NCBI GenBank assembly: GCA_008933995.1
Contig: WARS01002855.1
Coordinates: 528,001 to 592,000, forward strand
Origin: Datnioides undecimradiatus
Lineage: Eukaryota > Chordata > Actinopteri > Lobotiformes > Datnioididae
DNA length: 64,000 nt
Direction of reading: 5' to 3'
The translations under genes and the position numbers were made by a program. The notes under the pieces were generated by a model. It had not been told where the DNA came from. It made no database searches and saw only the letters and a list, made by a program, of their open reading frames with translations. How positions within the stretch are numbered: the first letter of the stretch is position 1; each line of letters opens with the position of its first letter. This document shows positions 19,017 through 55,562 of the stretch, piece after piece.

Positions 19017-19212
19017 ATGAGTTCGTTCAGCACGAGGGCTCTGACGCTGCTCTCGTCGGTTTTCGGGGCCTGCGGTCTGCTGTTGGTCGGCGTCGCCGTG
19101 TCGACAGACTACTGGCTGCTGATGGAGGAGGGAATCGTCCTGCAGCAGAACCAGACCACAGAGGTCAAGATGGCGCTGCACTCGGGCCTGTGGAGGGTCT
19201 GCTTCGTCGCAG
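19017..19212 (+). CDS. cacng7: cacng7 coding exon 1 (N-terminus, TM1, start of extracellular loop 1)
   Basis: A pyrimidine-rich acceptor ending CCACAG lies immediately before the ATG, which shows a non-coding exon must precede it. The exon encodes residues 1-65 plus the first base of codon 66, including RALTLLSSVFGACG and the GLWRVC motif. The donor follows GTCGCAG and reads GTTGGT, a weak match to consensus. The exon end agrees with the conserved family exon boundary after the GLW block. Confidence 0.95.
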
Positions 19213-20728: not shown

Positions 20729-21250
20729 ATGAGTGTGTGTGTGCGTGTGTGTGTGTGTGATACAGAGAGAGGAGGCAGGAATCATGTTTGTCGGTATGTG
20801 TGCGCATCATTTTTCATTTTGTTGACATATTTCCGTGTGTGTGTGTATACAGACGTCTGTGTGTGTGTGTGTGTGTGTGTCCTCTCCCTCTGTGCCTACA
20901 GTTTGAGGTTAATCGTCTTGTCTGTATTCAGCTCCTCTCTCTCTCTCTCTCGCAGCTCAGCCCTTGTTTTCTCCCGACCTCCATCTGCCTCCACCTCTAA
21001 TTCACTGTTTTCTCTCTCTCTCTCTCGTTTCATCATCTCTTTCGGGGTCTCTCGCCCCTCTCCGAGCCTCCATTTGCCTCCCCCCGTCTGCAGCGCTGTT
21101 GCTCTCCCGCTCGTCATCTCTCCCCTCTTCCTGTCTCTCCCTCTCTCTCAGGGCCGGAGAAGGGCCGGTGTGTGGCGTCGGAGTATTTCACCGAGCCAGA
21201 GATAGAGATCACCACGGAAAACACAGCCAACATCCTCAGTGAGTCAAGCC

Positions 21251-21285
<35 letters not shown>

Positions 21286-24200
21286 AGCTGATTTTCAGCC
21301 AATTAGCACCAATTAAAAGAAAAATAATAACAAAACATGTAATTAATTGATTTAACGTGTCCATAATAAAAGTGAAAGAGTGGCACATTTCAGAATAATC
21401 TCACTTTATATCCTGCAGGGCGGCTGGAGCACTTCCAGCAATAACGCGTCCAAATTCATTCATTTAATTAATTATTTATTTATTTATTTATTCATTCTGT
21501 GGTTGTGTTTTGATATCTGTGCCTTTTTAATGATGCACAGATTAACAGAAAACAGAACAACCATGTAACGGTCACGTTGTCGGATCAGAACCGGGGCGTG
21601 CAGGAGCCAGAGCTCAGAACAAAGCTGTTAAAACCAGACTGAACACATGTTCCGTGATACGAGTCCCAGTTCGTTTGCTTTTATTTCTGGACTTTGAGGT
21701 GAAAATGCTGTTTGAACGTTCTGCAGCTTCACTTGTTTCTCATAATCTGAGCACGGCCGGTGACTCTCTGTGCAGCAGGGAACTCTGGGATGCTAGCGGC
21801 CTGTTGCAGCAGGACAACACAGCACTGAGGCAGTTTGCATTTGGCCCGTGTCCGATCATAAAACAAAAGACTTGCAGTAATTGGGTTCTAGTGGGAGCGG
21901 GTGCAGGGGGGGTGAAACGTTAAAGAGATGCAGGAGCGAGCGGCATCTTCAGTCTACAACATCTTCCTTTCATTTGTCTTTTTAATCATGTTTGTCCCTC
22001 GCTCGCCCTCTCCCACAATCCCCTCTGTCCTGCAGAGATGGTCCGGACCGCCACCCCCTTCCCGATGGTCTCCCTGCTCTTCGTCTTCACCGCCTTCGTC
22101 ATCAGCAACATCGGACACATCCGGCCGCAGCGCACCATCCTCGCCTTCGTCTCCGGGATATTCTTCATCCTGTCAGGTACCGCGCACGTGCTCACACGCC
22201 AGCGTCTGTTCGCAGGTTCGCAGGTTCTTGTGCACGACTCCGGGCTGTTCTCCTCGCGCCTTGTTTCCCTTTTATCCAATTACTCTGCCGTGCAGAGTCG
22301 TTGCAGAGCAGCCTGGGAGACGAACGTCAGTGCACAGCTGTCGGTTGTCGGTCGGCGCAGGACGAACGCCTTCTCTGGGAGCTCGTGGTGCTCGGTGTGT
22401 TTATGCCAACAGTCAAATCAAGTGAGCTTAATCCACTTAATGGGACAGATGCAGCTCCTGTGCCAGGGCTGATGGTCAGGTGATTAAACCCGTCTCTGAA
22501 CTCTCATCAGCTGCTCTGGGGTCAGTCTCGCCTCACCTCGCTTTAAACTGCAGGCTCGGCACGATGCAGATAAAAAGGCTTTAGGAAAAGCGTCGTATCG
22601 GAGGTTTAAGAGCACCTGAGGTCACGCTTCTGACCTCCCTGTCCAGAAGCGCATTGCCTCGTCACCACAGTCTTTTCTCTCACGTCCTGCAGCAGCACCA
22701 ACAGCTCGGAGCCGCGCAGCATTTCGGTTCTTCAATAGTGACCCTTCAGTAAAGCACTTAAATGTTGTTGTTGTTGGTGAGAAAAGCCAGAAACGAGGAC
22801 GTTCTGTGTGTAAACACATTCTGCTCAGTGTCTGCACATCGAAAATAAGAATTAGAAAGTCTTCAAGAGCTTCAACTTCATCTTTAGTAGCTCACTCATC
22901 GCCCTTCAGCTCCTCCTGCTACACAGCGGATCATCTCGTTGGTAAACCGGGCGCCAACTGATCGGAAATCAGTGTGGTTCCACGTCGGTTTCTGATTCCG
23001 CACGCCCTTCTCGATGCAACCAGCCTGATTCTCGGGCTTTGCAGCTGCATCAGGAAGTGCGTCCTCGCGGCGATCGACCCGCTCGTCCTCTGCACGGGCG
23101 TTAAGTCTCAGTGGGAAACGTGAACTGAAAGGATGGAATGAATGAAAATCATAATAGAAATAACAGATATCATAAAACCCAGATAACGGCTCTCAGAGCA
23201 GTTTGGAAGGAGAGACGGAGGTCACAGACTCAGCCGACCTCGTTTCCTCGAGCAGATCGTCGCAGAGCCTCTGGATCATCGCTGCAAACCGGACGCATTG
23301 ACTTTTTCAGACGTTAACAGCACAATAACCGTTCGCCAACGAAGCCGAACTGTTGCAGGAATCTAAATGAGGGAGTTTCTTGAGCTGCGGCGTGACCATA
23401 CGTCGGTCACACCTGCTGGATGAACGCTCTGAAACGTCTCTCGCTGCAGCACCGCAGCCCATCGGGACTGCAGGAACGGGCACGAAGGCGTCGAGCTCCT
23501 CCCTCACCTGTCGGCTTAAATAAGATGTTAAAACGCAGCAGAGGGAGCGAGAGACGGGAGGGAGCTTGTTCAAAGTCAGCGTTCTTCAAGGTTAATGGTA
23601 AAAAGGCGGCTCAGTGGACGGAGGACTCCTCTCTCCTTTCCCCGGATGACAGCTCGTCAGACCGTACCTTGTTCCTGCTTCTGGCTGAACAGCGAGCGGG
23701 ATTTAATTCCAAATAATTGCTCTCTGCCGAGGAAGCTGCAGGGCGGCACTGATTTTATGTTTCGCCGCGGGCGTCTGGAAGAAAGCTTCAACCTGGACCA
23801 AATAGTCTGGAAGGAGACTTTGTTGTAGTTTGACATGTGGATCAGAAAGTCTGTAATGAGGCGGCTGGATGTCTTCAGGGTGAGATCTTTCCCATAATCC
23901 CACTGCAGCAGGTCGGCCGGACCGTCACCAACCGTCAGCACACAGACACCGTCCGCGCACTTCTGGATGCATGAGCTCGTGGCTCTGTCAGGTCTCTTCC
24001 TGCTAAAGCTCGGTCACAGATTGTGTTTGGTTCACTTGCACAAAGCGGCTCGGTGAGGACACAGCGTTCCCAGCTTCATGTGCAAGAGCTCGCCCAGAGC
24101 TCCGACCCCGACCCCGTCAAACACATTTGGGATGAACCGGAACACCGACCGCGGGCCGGGAGCGAGCCCCTGAAACCAGAAGACGCAGCAGCATTAAGGG

Positions 24201-27767: not shown

Positions 27768-27877
27768 ATTGTCCTTGTTTATCTCCGTTCCACAGCACAG
27801 CCTGTTGTTGGGGTTTTCTCAGTCTATTTACAGTACAACGAGGACACGTTATCATTAGCTATTCTAGCTACAGAGCG

Positions 27878-27925
<48 letters not shown>

Positions 27926-28508
27926 AGAGACCAAAGCCCTGCTCACATGGCGCTGGTGTCACGGGGAAACAGCGCCCGTCCTCGCACTGCTGTTAAAGCG
28001 CCACGAGGGAACGAACGTGACCAAACGTCGTTCTCTTCGGCGCCCTCGTCAGTCGGTCAGCGACCTCATCCGGCGTCTGCGGCGTTTGATCCGCTCTTGA
28101 ACCGTCTGTCCCTCCACCTCAGCCCTGTGTCTGTCAGTCATTGCCCCGCCCCTCCCCGGTCGCTCACGCTGTGCGTCCTCGCTCGCGTGTGCCGTCAGTT
28201 CGTCTGTGCGCAGCGTTTTTGGCGTTGCAGCCTGTTATTTGTTGTGTTTATCTGTTTTGGCCCATGGTCCGTCTCGTGGACTTCTGACGCCGCTGTCTTG
28301 GAGCTGTGCCGCTGTACCCTCCTGTCAGCCTCTTGCTTTTGTGTTTATTATTAAGTGCTGCAGCTCTTTGAGTCTGCATTTAGGGTCCTGACTCTACTTC
28401 TCTTATATCATGTGGTCCGTCCCCGGGATCAGCAGCGTGGGTAGAGCTCCACCTTTAAAATGAGCGCAGCAAACCCCTCGTTATATGAGATAATAACAGT
28501 CTGAGTAT

Positions 28509-28547
<39 letters not shown>

Positions 28548-28902
28548 GTCTCAGCCTGGTGGTTGGTCTGGTCTTGTATATCTCCAGTATTAACGACGAG
28601 GTGATGAACCGACCCAGGGAGCCGGAGCAGTTCTTCCACTACCACTACGGCTGGTCCTTCGCCTTCGCCGCCTCCTCCTTCCTGCTTAAAGAGGTAATCG
28701 AAGAGGAACACGCGCACGCGCACGCGCACACACGCTGAGATGTAGTCATGCGTGAACATTTGCATGTACCGACACAAACACACACGAAGAAAACACCAGC
28801 GCAGGCAGAAACACGCACACACGCGCTGCAGATGTGCACAACGCAAACACGCACACAAGTGACGCTAATGTGCACTGATGCTTAACATTCACAGAAGCTC
28901 AT

Positions 28903-28940
<38 letters not shown>

Positions 28941-29915
28941 TTTGCAATCTGCCCTGGATGTCGACCAACCGCCGTTTAGCGAAACACACTCCAGCATGCG
29001 TATAAACACAGACACACAAACTTGCCTGTAGCTTTCTGAAATGCAGACGTATTCAGCTGAACACACACACACACACACACACGTGCACACACACACCACA
29101 CACACACACATTTGAAAAGTGCCTGCGTAGGAGCCCGTCATCCTGCCTGCATCAATATTCATAAATGTTAATAGCTGGAATACTTGAGGGCAGCAGCTCT
29201 GTCGCAGCTCAGCTTCATATGCATCTGAATGTTGCTGGCGGGTGGAGGCTGATGGAGGGGGGGTGATGGGGGGGGGGCTCTGCTACGCCTTCTTCTCGCT
29301 CCTTCTTTCCTCTCCTTTCATCTCCCTCCTCCTCTTCTTATTCCTTAATTCCTCCTCTCTGCCCTTCGCTTCTATTTCCTTCCTTCCTTCCTTCCTTCCT
29401 TCCTCTGTTCCCTCATCTTATCTCCCCTTGGTCTCTTCTTCTCCCACTTCATCTTGAAGTGCTCTCCTCTTCTCTTTAATCTCAACCCTCCCTCCTCTAA
29501 TCCTTTATTATCTCCATCCCTCACTCTTCCTCTCGTATCTCCTCTCCTCTTCTTCCTCCTTTCATCCTATCTCCCCTCCTTCCTTGTGTCTTCCCTCCTC
29601 TCCTATTCTCTTCCTTTTGTTTCCTTTCCTCCCTCCTGTCCTCTCATGTCTTGTCTCATCTCCTCCCCTCCTTTCCTCCTCCTCCTCCTCCTCTTCTAAT
29701 CCGTAAAACATGGGATCCTTCACACACACACACACTCACTCATCAGCGTGCTGTTTAAAGGCGGTTGTAGCTGATGCTGTGGGTGAATAGTGAATGAGCT
29801 GTGAACGCTCGGCTGAAAACACGAATACGTTTCTGATAATGGCTCGTTCCACCGAGGAGCGCCGAGGCTTTTTGGCAACTCTCTGCAAAATGACTATGGA
29901 TTTATTAAATTTACC

Positions 29916-29949
<34 letters not shown>

Positions 29950-31337
29950 CCACGCCCCATCTTAATGGCAGCATGCTGCAGTTTAGGCAGCAGGAGGACG
30001 GGGCTCATTCTGACGCTGCATTAAAGCTTGTCGCGTCGGGGAATGTGCTGAAAAGTCTGCGGCGCAGGCTCGACTGTCTCCGCTCGCACCGACGTCGAGT
30101 CCGCTCTCTGCACCGCCTGATTTGTCTGTTTGCATATCGGATCCACCTCTTTTCCACAGGCTGTATACAGAATATACAACATGCGTACGGATGGGGCTGT
30201 TTATGCGATTTAAAACCCATGCTTCTTGTCAGCCTGCTGATATAAATATGAACATAAAACATAATAAAAGCAAAACAAGACAATAAATGTTTTATGAAGC
30301 GCGAGCAGTGAGACGTTAATCCAAACACACCGTCTCCGGGGCGTCAGGATCATCCGAACGTGTTTCATTAATGGAAAATGTTTGTTTCTGTGTTGAAACG
30401 TGTAAAATGCATCTGATGCAGCTCTGCAGGGATGCTTACTGAATATAATGTATATACAACGAGTTTCAGCTGATGAGAAAAAGGCTTTATTCAACAAAGA
30501 ATAGTCCCAGTCGATGCTTCAGAGGCCGAGCTGTCATACGTCAAACACGCCATGACATCACTGTTCACTCAGGAGCGTAGCTAAACGTCCAGATCAGCGA
30601 GTGCAGGTCTTAAACGTGGCGTCTGTGCAGACTCTGGCTCCACATGATGCAAACGGAGCGAGATGGCGGCCGCCGTGCACCGTGAGAGGAAGCGTGTCGG
30701 CCATCTTTACGCCGTTTATGGTTGTACTGAACCTCATGCGGCGTCGCAGCGGCAGCGTGTTGTCTGGTTTCGTGCCCGTAGCAACACGCAGCCGTGATGT
30801 GACACGCTGTTTTGTTTCCGTGTGTCCCAGGGCGCCGGCGTGATGTCCGTCTACCTCTTCATGAAGCGTTACGCTGAGGAGGAGCTGTACCGGCCCCACC
30901 CCGCCCTCTACCGCCCCCGCATGTCTGACTGCAGCGACTACAGCGGCCAGTTCCTCCACCCGGACTCCTGGCCTCCTCCGCAGCGGGGCCGCAGCGCCTC
31001 CGAGGTCTCCTCCGACATCTCCATCCAGCTCAACCAGACGCCGCCGCAGCCGCCGCCCAAGGGGGGCAGCAGCTCCCAGCCGACGCCCTCCTCCTCTGGG
31101 CCTTCGTCGGCGGCCAGTTACCAGCTCCAGCCGGCCTCCTCCTCCTCCACCTCCTCCTCTTACCCACACCCACTCCACATGGCCGCCACCTCCACCCTAC
31201 CCAGAGCGTCCCATGCTCACGCTCACCCCCACCCGAGCGGGCCCCCACCCCAGTCCCTGCCCATGGCGGCGCCCCCCTCAGCGGTGCCTCCTCCCCGCTA
31301 TCACACGCACATGCGAATGAGCGCCTCGCCATGCTAG
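19017..31337 (+). CDS. cacng7: Voltage-dependent calcium channel gamma-7 subunit (type II TARP), 5 coding exons
   Basis: The joined exons are 19017-19212, 21152-21238, 22036-22176, 28548-28693 and 30831-31337, all with GT-AG introns and one continuous frame of 358 residues. The protein is close to mammalian CACNG7 from residue 1 through the fourth membrane segment. Visible parts: TM1 about 8-32; first extracellular loop with sequon N45-Q-T and the GLW-x2-C motif at 57-62, whose partner cysteine is C72; TM2 about 103-122; TM3 about 127-152; TM4 about 176-200; then a cytoplasmic tail. By family knowledge it is an auxiliary subunit that alters AMPA receptor trafficking and gating in neurons. The start codon directly follows an acceptor, so the 5' UTR must come from an upstream exon. 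The tail is about 80 residues longer than in the 275-residue human protein because of a Pro/Ser/His-rich stretch. The C-terminus -SPC is retained, and there is no type I PDZ ligand. Identity is very sure; the ohnolog letter (a/b) cannot be assigned. Confidence 0.96.
20502..20530 (+). repeat. (CA)n microsatellite in cacng7 intron 1
   Basis: Perfect CA repeat, complementary to the GT repeat at 20695-20727. Confidence 0.95.
20695..20759 (+). repeat. (GT)n microsatellite, interrupted, in cacng7 intron 1
   Basis: Two GT runs separated by a short GCATGAGT interruption. Confidence 0.95.
21152..21238 (+). CDS. cacng7: cacng7 coding exon 2 (extracellular loop 1)
   Basis: This 87-base exon encodes GPEKGRCVASEYFTEPEIE and following residues, with cysteine C72 that pairs with C62. 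The acceptor is preceded by about 210 bases of almost pure pyrimidine. The donor is GTGAGT, and a CA repeat begins about 15 bases into the intron. Confidence 0.94.
21253..21282 (+). repeat. (CA)15 repeat just after the cacng7 exon 2 donor
   Basis: The repeat begins about 15 bases into intron 2. Confidence 0.95.
22036..22176 (+). CDS. cacng7: cacng7 coding exon 3 (TM2 and first part of TM3)
   Basis: This 141-base exon encodes MVRTATPFPMVSLLFVFTAF through FFILSG, nearly identical to mammalian CACNG7. The matching cacng8 exon (54095-54235) is also exactly 141 bases with the same phase, which supports both boundaries. The acceptor is CTGCAG and the donor GTACCG. Confidence 0.96.
25772..25821 (+). 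repeat. (GT)25 microsatellite
   Basis: Fifty bases of perfect GT, in cacng7 intron 3, 180 bases before a complementary CA repeat. Confidence 0.97.
26002..26039 (+). repeat. (CA)19 microsatellite
   Basis: Near-perfect CA repeat in cacng7 intron 3, able to pair with the GT repeat at 25772-25821 in the transcript. Confidence 0.97.
27729..27765 (+). repeat. (GT)n microsatellite
   Basis: Perfect GT repeat in cacng7 intron 3; another lies at 27583-27614. Confidence 0.97.
27882..27921 (+). repeat. (CA)20 microsatellite
   Basis: Perfect CA repeat, 117 bases after the GT repeat at 27729-27765 and 590 bases before the TG tract at the exon 4 acceptor. Confidence 0.97.
28512..28545 (+). repeat. (TG)n tract abutting cacng7 splice acceptor
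   Basis: A TG repeat of about 34 bases runs straight into the TGTGCAG acceptor of coding exon 4. The usual CT-rich tract is missing. Confidence 0.95.
28548..28693 (+). CDS. cacng7: cacng7 coding exon 4 (rest of TM3, loop 2, start of TM4)
   Basis: This 146-base exon encodes LSLVVGLVLYISSINDEV through FAFAASSFLLKE (residues 142-190). The 3' splice site is TGTGCAG, preceded directly by about 34 bases of TG repeat instead of a normal polypyrimidine tract. A TAATAAC branch-point-like sequence sits at 28491-28497. The length is not a multiple of three, so skipping would shift the frame. The donor is GTAATC. Confidence 0.95.
28903..29090 (+). repeat. Two (CA)n repeats after cacng7 coding exon 4
   Basis: CA runs at 28903-28938 and 29061-29090, complementary to the TG tract before the same exon. 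Confidence 0.95.
29285..29697 (+). repeat. Polypyrimidine tract of about 410 bases
   Basis: The + strand is almost entirely C and T, including TTCC and CCT runs. It lies in cacng7 intron 4. Confidence 0.9.
30772..30785. promoter_or_regulatory. RFX X-box-like motif in cacng7 intron 4
   Basis: GTGCCCGTAGCAAC fits GTNNCC-N2-RGYAAC. It ends 45 bases before the last cacng7 exon, so it may be coincidental. Confidence 0.2.
30831..31337 (+). CDS. cacng7: cacng7 coding exon 5 (end of TM4 and extended cytoplasmic tail)
   Basis: The exon opens with GAGVMSVYLFMKRYAEEELY and runs through the conserved RPRMSDCSDYSGQFLHPDSW block, then a Pro/Ser/His/Gln-rich stretch absent from the human protein as I recall it, and ends MRMSASPC with a TAG stop. 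The acceptor is TGTCCCAG. Base composition is strongly GC-rich with CCN and TCN codon runs. Confidence 0.94.
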   Translation, partial: GAGVMSVYLFMKRYAEEELYRPHPALYRPRMSDCSDYSGQFLHPDSWPPPQRGRSASEVSSDISIQLNQTPPQPPPKGGSSSQPTPSSSGPSSAASYQLQPASSSSTSSSYPHPLHMAATSTLPRASHAHAHPHPSGPPPQSLPMAAPPSAVPPPRYHTHMRMSASPC

Positions 31338-43325: not shown

Positions 43326-43329
43326 CGTG

Positions 43330-43372
<43 letters not shown>

Positions 43373-43400
43373 CTGCGTGCGTGCGTGTGTGTGTGTGTGT
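43326..43400 (+). repeat. (CGTG)n array grading into (GT)n
   Basis: About 15 CGTG units with one CCTG variant, then GT units, roughly 0.9 kb before the candidate cacng8 5' exon. Confidence 0.95.
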
Positions 43401-43576
43401 TTGCGTCCGTCATGTATGACCGGTGGAATTCACACACACACACTTTTATTTTTTTATTTTCAATCTCAACAGAATCCTCTCAGCTGTTACATCCATCCCT
43501 CCACTCCACCGACACACACACACACAAACACACACACACACGCTCGCCAGCTCCACCATAGACTTTGGAATTCACT

Positions 43577-44327: not shown

Positions 44328-55562
<11,235 letters not shown>

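What the first reader, a model, noticed from the sequence alone, without database searches (positions are those of the whole stretch)
28491..28693. TG repeat replaces the polypyrimidine tract at a cacng7 splice acceptor
The acceptor of cacng7 coding exon 4 is fixed by protein homology, yet the 34 bases before TGTGCAG are pure TG with no CT-rich tract. A TAATAAC branch-point-like site lies about 50 bases upstream. UG repeats beside acceptors are known binding sites of TDP-43, as at CFTR exon 9, where they promote skipping. This exon is 146 bases, so skipping would shift the frame inside TM3/TM4 and remove the tail. The tract length is probably polymorphic, which could tune gamma-7 dosage.
Basis: partly seen in the sequence, partly recalled or inferred. 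Interest (0 to 1): 0.75.

Follow-up and report, generated by a model that had tools for sequence, protein, structure and literature searches.

The report
TG microsatellite at cacng7 splice acceptor
A short TG repeat sits where a splice acceptor normally has a pyrimidine-rich stretch in a fish-like brain receptor gene; this looks like a known kind of fish intron end, with a possible extra twist in which the repeat could pair across the exon with a complementary stretch.

Summary
The acceptor of cacng7 coding exon 4 (28548-28693, 146 nt) is fixed by homology to solved gamma-7 and is preceded by (TG)14 at 28517-28544: 28 nt in all, 24 (not 34) before TGTGCAG. It is the weakest of five cacng7 acceptors scored. 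TAATAAC lies 51 nt before the intron end. Skipping by TDP-43 and a dosage effect are possible but untested; a skipped mRNA would stop in the last coding exon, so decay is not predicted. TG and CA arrays are common in this window, and UG-repeat introns paired with CA repeats that bypass U2AF2 are described in fish (PMC12962679, passages). This intron lacks that class's AC tract at its own 5' end. Instead a CACGCG-type tract 16 nt into the next intron can form a 27-bp stem around the exon. That is rare against random places (18 of 11,528) but not against TG arrays (5 of 26, this one included). Best reading: a microsatellite at a working, weak acceptor; a new member of a known kind.

The parts
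22036..22176 (+). cacng7 coding exon 3 (141 nt), upstream partner exon; donor GTACCG at 22177
   Evidence: gene model; homology to gamma-7
27882..27921 (+). (CA)20 inside intron 3, possible alternative partner of the TG run
   Evidence: duplex -54.7 kcal/mol
28491..28497 (+). TAATAAC, branch-point-like; A at 28496 is 51 nt from the intron end
   Evidence: resemblance to the branch consensus is recalled
28498..28505 (+). two upstream AGs (28498-28499, 28504-28505) ending 3 and 9 nt after the presumed branch A; use of the first gives a stop at once, use of the second adds 14 in-frame residues
   Evidence: scores -2.1 and -7.3 against 2.2 for the real acceptor with a recalled matrix
28506..28516 (+). 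TATTATATATA, TA part of the compound microsatellite
28517..28544 (+). (TG)14 in place of the polypyrimidine tract
28545..28547 (+). CAG acceptor of intron 3
28548..28693 (+). cacng7 coding exon 4, 146 nt, phase 1 start, ends on a whole codon
28553..28587 (+). two AGs inside exon 4: ending 28554 (score 1.7) and 28587 (score 7.9, above the real acceptor); use of either would remove 7 or 40 nt and shift the frame
   Evidence: recalled matrix
28709..28735 (+). CACGCG/CACA tract starting 16 nt into intron 4, complementary to the TG run (27 pairs)
   Evidence: duplex -50.7; local folds
28904..28938 (+). (CA)17 in intron 4, alternative partner
30831..31334 (+). cacng7 coding exon 5, last coding exon; stop of the skip product at 30875-30877
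   Evidence: stop letters

Best explanation
A compound TA/TG microsatellite has taken the place of the pyrimidine tract at a working but weak acceptor of cacng7 in a teleost-like genome. Most transcripts probably include exon 4: the branch-like site, the AG-free repeat (no competing AG lies between it and the intron end) and exon definition carry recognition, helped by UG-repeat behaviour described for fish introns (pairing with CA-rich RNA) and by UG-binding proteins, in place of strong U2AF2 contact. TDP-43- or CELF-type binding may lower inclusion somewhat. Shown here: position, length, exon frame, weak score, complementary tracts. Inferred: constitutive use, factors, direction of any effect.
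For: The exon with this start is needed for an intact gamma-7. Of the two AGs between the branch-like A and the repeat, 28499 gives a stop and 28505 adds [14 protein letters not shown] and scores -7.3; AGs inside the exon shift the frame. The acceptor scores 2.2 against 8.9 to 13.7 for the other four cacng7 acceptors (recalled matrix). TG and CA runs of 20 nt or more make up 0.58% and 0.60% of the strand, so microsatellite drift is sufficient. Fish are reported to have thousands of intronic pUG sequences accompanied by CA repeats that bring intron ends together and replace U2AF2 (PMC12962679, introduction passage; similar in PMC7404189 section 4.1).
Against: No RNA evidence that the exon is efficiently included. 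An AG inside the exon (ending 28587) scores 7.9, above the real acceptor, and one ending 28554 scores 1.7. In all eight folds the acceptor bases 28545-28550 are predicted mostly paired (unpaired 0.24-0.28), which would hinder use. The fish class pairs the two ends of one intron, and intron 3 has no AC array at its 5' end; its end-to-end duplex (-46.8) is matched by 275 of 1500 random pairs. TDP-43 close to a splice site is reported to repress it (PMC13343711, passage).
Confidence: 0.55

Rival explanations
1. TDP-43 (with CELF-type proteins as competitors) binds the UG run and makes exon 4 a regulated skipped exon, as at CFTR exon 9; the truncated product lowers working gamma-7.
For: (UG)14 is longer than the (TG)11 and (TG)12 with T5 in the CFTR passages seen; TDP-43 binds long GU repeats cooperatively (PMC8523171, abstract and passages); binding near splice sites represses.
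Against: No data here; CFTR mis-splicing also requires an exonic hnRNP A1 silencer, not looked for here; the skip product is predicted truncated but not decayed; strong pairing partners could mask the run.
Confidence: 0.2
2. The UG run pairs with the CACGCG tract past the donor (or the CA run at 28904) and encloses exon 4 in a stem, either looping it out (skipping), aiding exon definition, or favouring a circular RNA.
For: 27-pair duplex, -50.7 kcal/mol. Of nine folds that contain the tract (three, six), the UG run pairs with it at 0.95-0.96 in four and at 0.58-0.59 in the two limited to 200-nt spans. 281-nt fold z = -3.99, 0 of 200 shuffles as stable. Exon-flank duplex -55.6, reached by 18 of 11,528 pseudo-exon places in the window.
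Against: In the other three of those nine folds the UG run pairs elsewhere: 28904-28938 (28450-28960 fold; span 450) or that run and 27882-27921 together (27860-28960). Dinucleotide repeats pair well by nature: of 26 TG runs of 20 nt or more on both strands, 5 (this included; the other four are two places read from both strands) have a partner of -50 or better at the same offset. No relatives to test conservation.
Confidence: 0.12
3. The UG run folds by itself as a pUG quadruplex between branch point and AG and brings the AG from 51 to about 23 nt of the branch point in effect.
For: 14 repeats; the fold takes 12 UG repeats, and pUGs of 12 or more repeats are reported enriched near human splice sites (PMC12276007, abstract and introduction passages).
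Against: Folding half-life in vitro of 13 min or more (same abstract) is slow against splicing (recalled); complementary CA runs nearby favour a duplex, as stated for fish. Nothing here tests it.
Confidence: 0.05
4. Assembly or sequencing error: the real acceptor has a normal pyrimidine tract or another repeat length.
For: Microsatellites are error-prone (recalled).
Against: Flanks are without N and in frame; the repeat length may be off by units, but a lost pyrimidine tract is unlikely.
Confidence: 0.05

Closest known systems
Fish AC...GT introns that pair and bypass U2AF2 (Lin et al., Genome Res 2016, doi 10.1101/gr.181008.114; paper not held; described in PMC7404189 sec. 4.1, and PMC12962679 passage)
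   Same: UG repeat directly at the 3' end of a fish-like intron, no pyrimidine tract, complementary CA-rich RNA nearby
   Different: No AC array at the 5' end of the same intron; the nearest boundary partner lies past the donor of the next intron, so it would bridge the exon, not the intron
CFTR intron 8 (TG)m(T)n and exon 9 skipping by TDP-43
   Same: UG run just before the acceptor; skipping would ruin the protein
   Different: CFTR keeps a short T tract after the repeat and needs an exonic silencer (PMC12171016, abstract and passages); here no T tract, silencer not examined, skipping not shown
AC and GT repeats as predicted intronic splicing enhancers of fish (Yeo et al., PNAS 2004; recalled only, not found)
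   Same: GT repeat by an acceptor; AC-rich stretches just past three of seven donors in the two genes (0.5%, 1.8% and 6.8% of random places as rich)
   Different: The repeat stands in the place of the pyrimidine tract itself; no enhancer assay
pUG fold (left-handed quadruplex of 12 UG repeats)
   Same: enough repeats
   Different: no evidence of folding; CA partners present

Membership tests
Fish AC...GT paired introns | GT repeat at the 3' end of the intron | tested here: met
   (TG)14 at 28517-28544 directly before CAG
Fish AC...GT paired introns | complementary AC repeat at the 5' end of the same intron | tested here: not met
   positions +7 to +60 past the exon-3 donor hold 11 CA/AC steps, as many in 16.6% of random places; end-to-end duplex -46.8, matched by 275 of 1500 random pairs; TG run against the first 150 nt only -28.0
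Fish AC...GT paired introns | splicing without U2AF2 | not testable with these tools
   needs knock-down or in vitro splicing
TDP-43-silenced exon (CFTR exon 9 type) | UG run long enough for TDP-43 close to the acceptor | tested here: met
   14 repeats, 3 nt from the exon
TDP-43-silenced exon (CFTR exon 9 type) | TDP-43 binding and TDP-43-dependent skipping | not testable with these tools
   no CLIP or RNA-seq held
TDP-43-silenced exon (CFTR exon 9 type) | exonic hnRNP A1 silencer | not tested
   no search made
pUG fold | at least 12 G in UG repeats | tested here: met
   14 repeats
pUG fold | quadruplex formation | not testable with these tools
   the folding runs used here do not model it
Exon looped out by flanking complementary introns | complementary sequences on both sides of the exon | tested here: met
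   duplex of flanks -55.6
Exon looped out by flanking complementary introns | pairing beyond what repeat density gives, or conserved | tested here: inconclusive
   18 of 11,528 random places, but 5 of 26 TG runs; no relatives

The most novel reading that the evidence does not exclude
The UG acceptor and the CACGCG tract past the donor form an exon-bridging stem: the fish intron-bridging device turned inside out, holding both splice sites of one exon together, so that repeat length sets whether cacng7 exon 4 is included, skipped or circularised.
Probability: 0.1. Interest if true: 0.55.

Novelty: new member of a known kind. Interest (0 to 1): 0.27.

Why it matters
If the exon-bridging pairing were real it would extend a fish mechanism that spares U2AF2 from introns to exons, with a repeat-length dial on an AMPA-receptor auxiliary subunit. 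If not, it is a clear example of how a microsatellite can take over a pyrimidine tract in a repeat-rich genome.

Tried and rejected
Rejected as the main site: AGs at 28499 (stop) and 28505 (14 extra residues, lowest score). Not excluded as minor sites: AGs inside the exon ending 28554 and 28587, scores 1.7 and 7.9, both out of frame. Rejected as a strict match: same-intron AC...GT bridging. Held as weak: the 281-nt fold z-score, because shuffling destroys the repeats; the control conditioned on TG runs is the fairer one and weakens the pairing claim. Rfam on the window at gathering scores: 0 matches.

Literature searches: 29 papers, 20 listed; 6 listed; 1,147 with either term, 20 listed; 19, 15 listed; CACNG7 with splicing and exon: 21, 12 listed, none about its splicing by title or abstract start; none opened; 1,960, 15 listed, nothing of use; 125, 10 listed; of these only the review PMC13343711 was opened. 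Papers opened: PMC7404189 (passages, sections 4.1 and 4.2), PMC5766209 and PMC10809524 (passages; they cite the 2016 fish paper, in the passages shown only in the reference lists), PMC12171016, PMC12276007, PMC13174678, PMC12962679, PMC13343711 and PMC8523171 (passages).

In one search three of four motif anchors for the second gene failed and its exons were read from printed DNA; the anchor for that gene's exon-2 acceptor was one base early (50879 for 50880). Neighbouring windows overlap. No genome-wide count of such acceptors could be made, and the species was not identified.

Full report
What is there. The window carries two receptor auxiliary-subunit genes on the + strand. The first is cacng7: five coding exons at 19017-19212, 21152-21238, 22036-22176, 28548-28693 and 30831-31334 give a 358-residue protein that matches the solved gamma-7 chain 9s41_I at E 3.4e-146 and runs without a gap across the exon 3/4 and 4/5 joins. 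The second, from 48372 to about 55562, matches gamma-8 best (E 1.1e-122). The animal was not identified; a teleost is inferred from the repeat density and the gene pair. The exon-4 acceptor is therefore firm. It is preceded by (TG)14 at 28517-28544, then CAG. Before it stands TATTATATATA, then two AGs, then TAATAAC at 28491-28497.

How unusual. One of those four, directly before the start codon, is an acceptor by assumption. Of the AGs from 28489 to 28600 only one scores above the real acceptor: the one ending 28587 inside the exon (7.9), whose use would remove 40 nt and shift the frame; one ending 28554 scores 1.7. Of eight acceptors listed in the two genes, one has a TG run; the exon-5 acceptor is mildly rich in TG/GT steps (15, as many in 5.4% of random places). 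TG runs of 20 nt or more cover 0.58% of the + strand and stand within 6 nt of 7 of 4063 AGs there and 7 of 4473 on the other strand. So it is notable in one gene and expected often in a genome.

What surrounds it. Sixteen nt into intron 4 starts a 27-nt CACGCG/CACA tract (28709-28735) that pairs along its whole length with the TG run (27 pairs, -50.7 kcal/mol). CA runs at 27882-27921 and 28904-28938 pair somewhat better (-54.7, -54.4). Eleven folds were made (three, eight); nine contain the tract. In four of the nine the TG run pairs with it at 0.95-0.96, in two (pairs limited to 200 nt) at 0.58-0.59, and in three it pairs elsewhere: with 28904-28938 in two, with that run and 27882-27921 in one. 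Of the two folds without the tract, the TG run is paired 0.61 in one and 0.99, with 27882-27921, in the other. In all eight folds the acceptor bases are mostly paired (unpaired 0.24-0.28), also where the tract is absent. The 281-nt piece folds better than all 200 shuffles (z -3.99), a test biased by the repeats. Against pseudo-exons every 11 bases on both strands, 18 of 11,528 have flanks pairing as well as exon 4 (neighbours overlap). Against 26 TG runs read on both strands, 5 have a partner at -50 or better at the same offset, this one included. So the stem is possible, not shown, and not surprising where TG and CA runs cluster.

Known kinds. Fish are described as having thousands of intronic pUG sequences accompanied by CA repeats that bring intron ends together and replace U2AF2 (PMC12962679, passage; PMC7404189 section 4.1; original paper not held). 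The present intron has the UG half only: its 5' end is not notably AC-rich and its ends pair no better than many random pairs (275 of 1500 as strong). AC-rich DNA does follow some donors: exon 2 of cacng7 (as many CA/AC steps in 0.5% of random places), exon 2 of the gamma-8-like gene (1.8%), exon 4 of cacng7 (6.8%); the four other donors of the seven are at 16.6% or above. This fits the fish pattern but was looked at after the fact. TDP-43 at CFTR exon 9 is the closest disease precedent (PMC12171016, abstract and passages), with a T tract that is absent here and an exonic silencer that was not looked for.

Consequence of skipping. Exons 1-3 plus exon 5 read 141 native residues, 15 others and a stop at 30875-30877 (positions counted by hand; stop letters), losing part of TM3, TM4 and the tail (helix placement recalled). 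This stop lies in the last coding exon, so junction-dependent decay is not expected unless a 3' UTR intron exists. Using the AG at 28505 would insert 14 residues, most of them coded by the repeat, in frame at this repeat number and at numbers differing by multiples of three, but it has the lowest score of the AGs compared.

Verdict. A real microsatellite acceptor of ordinary origin, a new member of a known kind, with an untested exon-bridging pairing as its most novel reading.

Noticed in passing
48372-55562: A gamma-8-like gene downstream of cacng7 on the same strand; joined exons match solved gamma-8 at E 1.1e-122. The same neighbours are recalled for mammals.
   Followed up: partly
21255-21283: CA run of 29 nt starting 17 nt into intron 2 of cacng7; that intron's acceptor has an ordinary pyrimidine tract.
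   Followed up: partly
50971-51024: AC-rich stretch soon after the exon-2 donor of the gamma-8-like gene.
   Followed up: partly
28506-28547: The TG run is open in the exon's frame; using the AG at 28505 would add [14 protein letters not shown] at the exon 3/4 join.
   Followed up: partly
28568-28587: An AG inside exon 4 with a better pyrimidine context (score 7.9) than the real acceptor (2.2), out of frame.
   Followed up: partly
48279-48333: 17-nt unit tandem repeat (TGGTCTGATTCTGGTTT, 3.2 copies, 100% match) just before the start codon of the gamma-8-like gene.
   Followed up: no
43329-43410: GTGC tetranucleotide array, 20.5 copies, 91% match.
   Followed up: no
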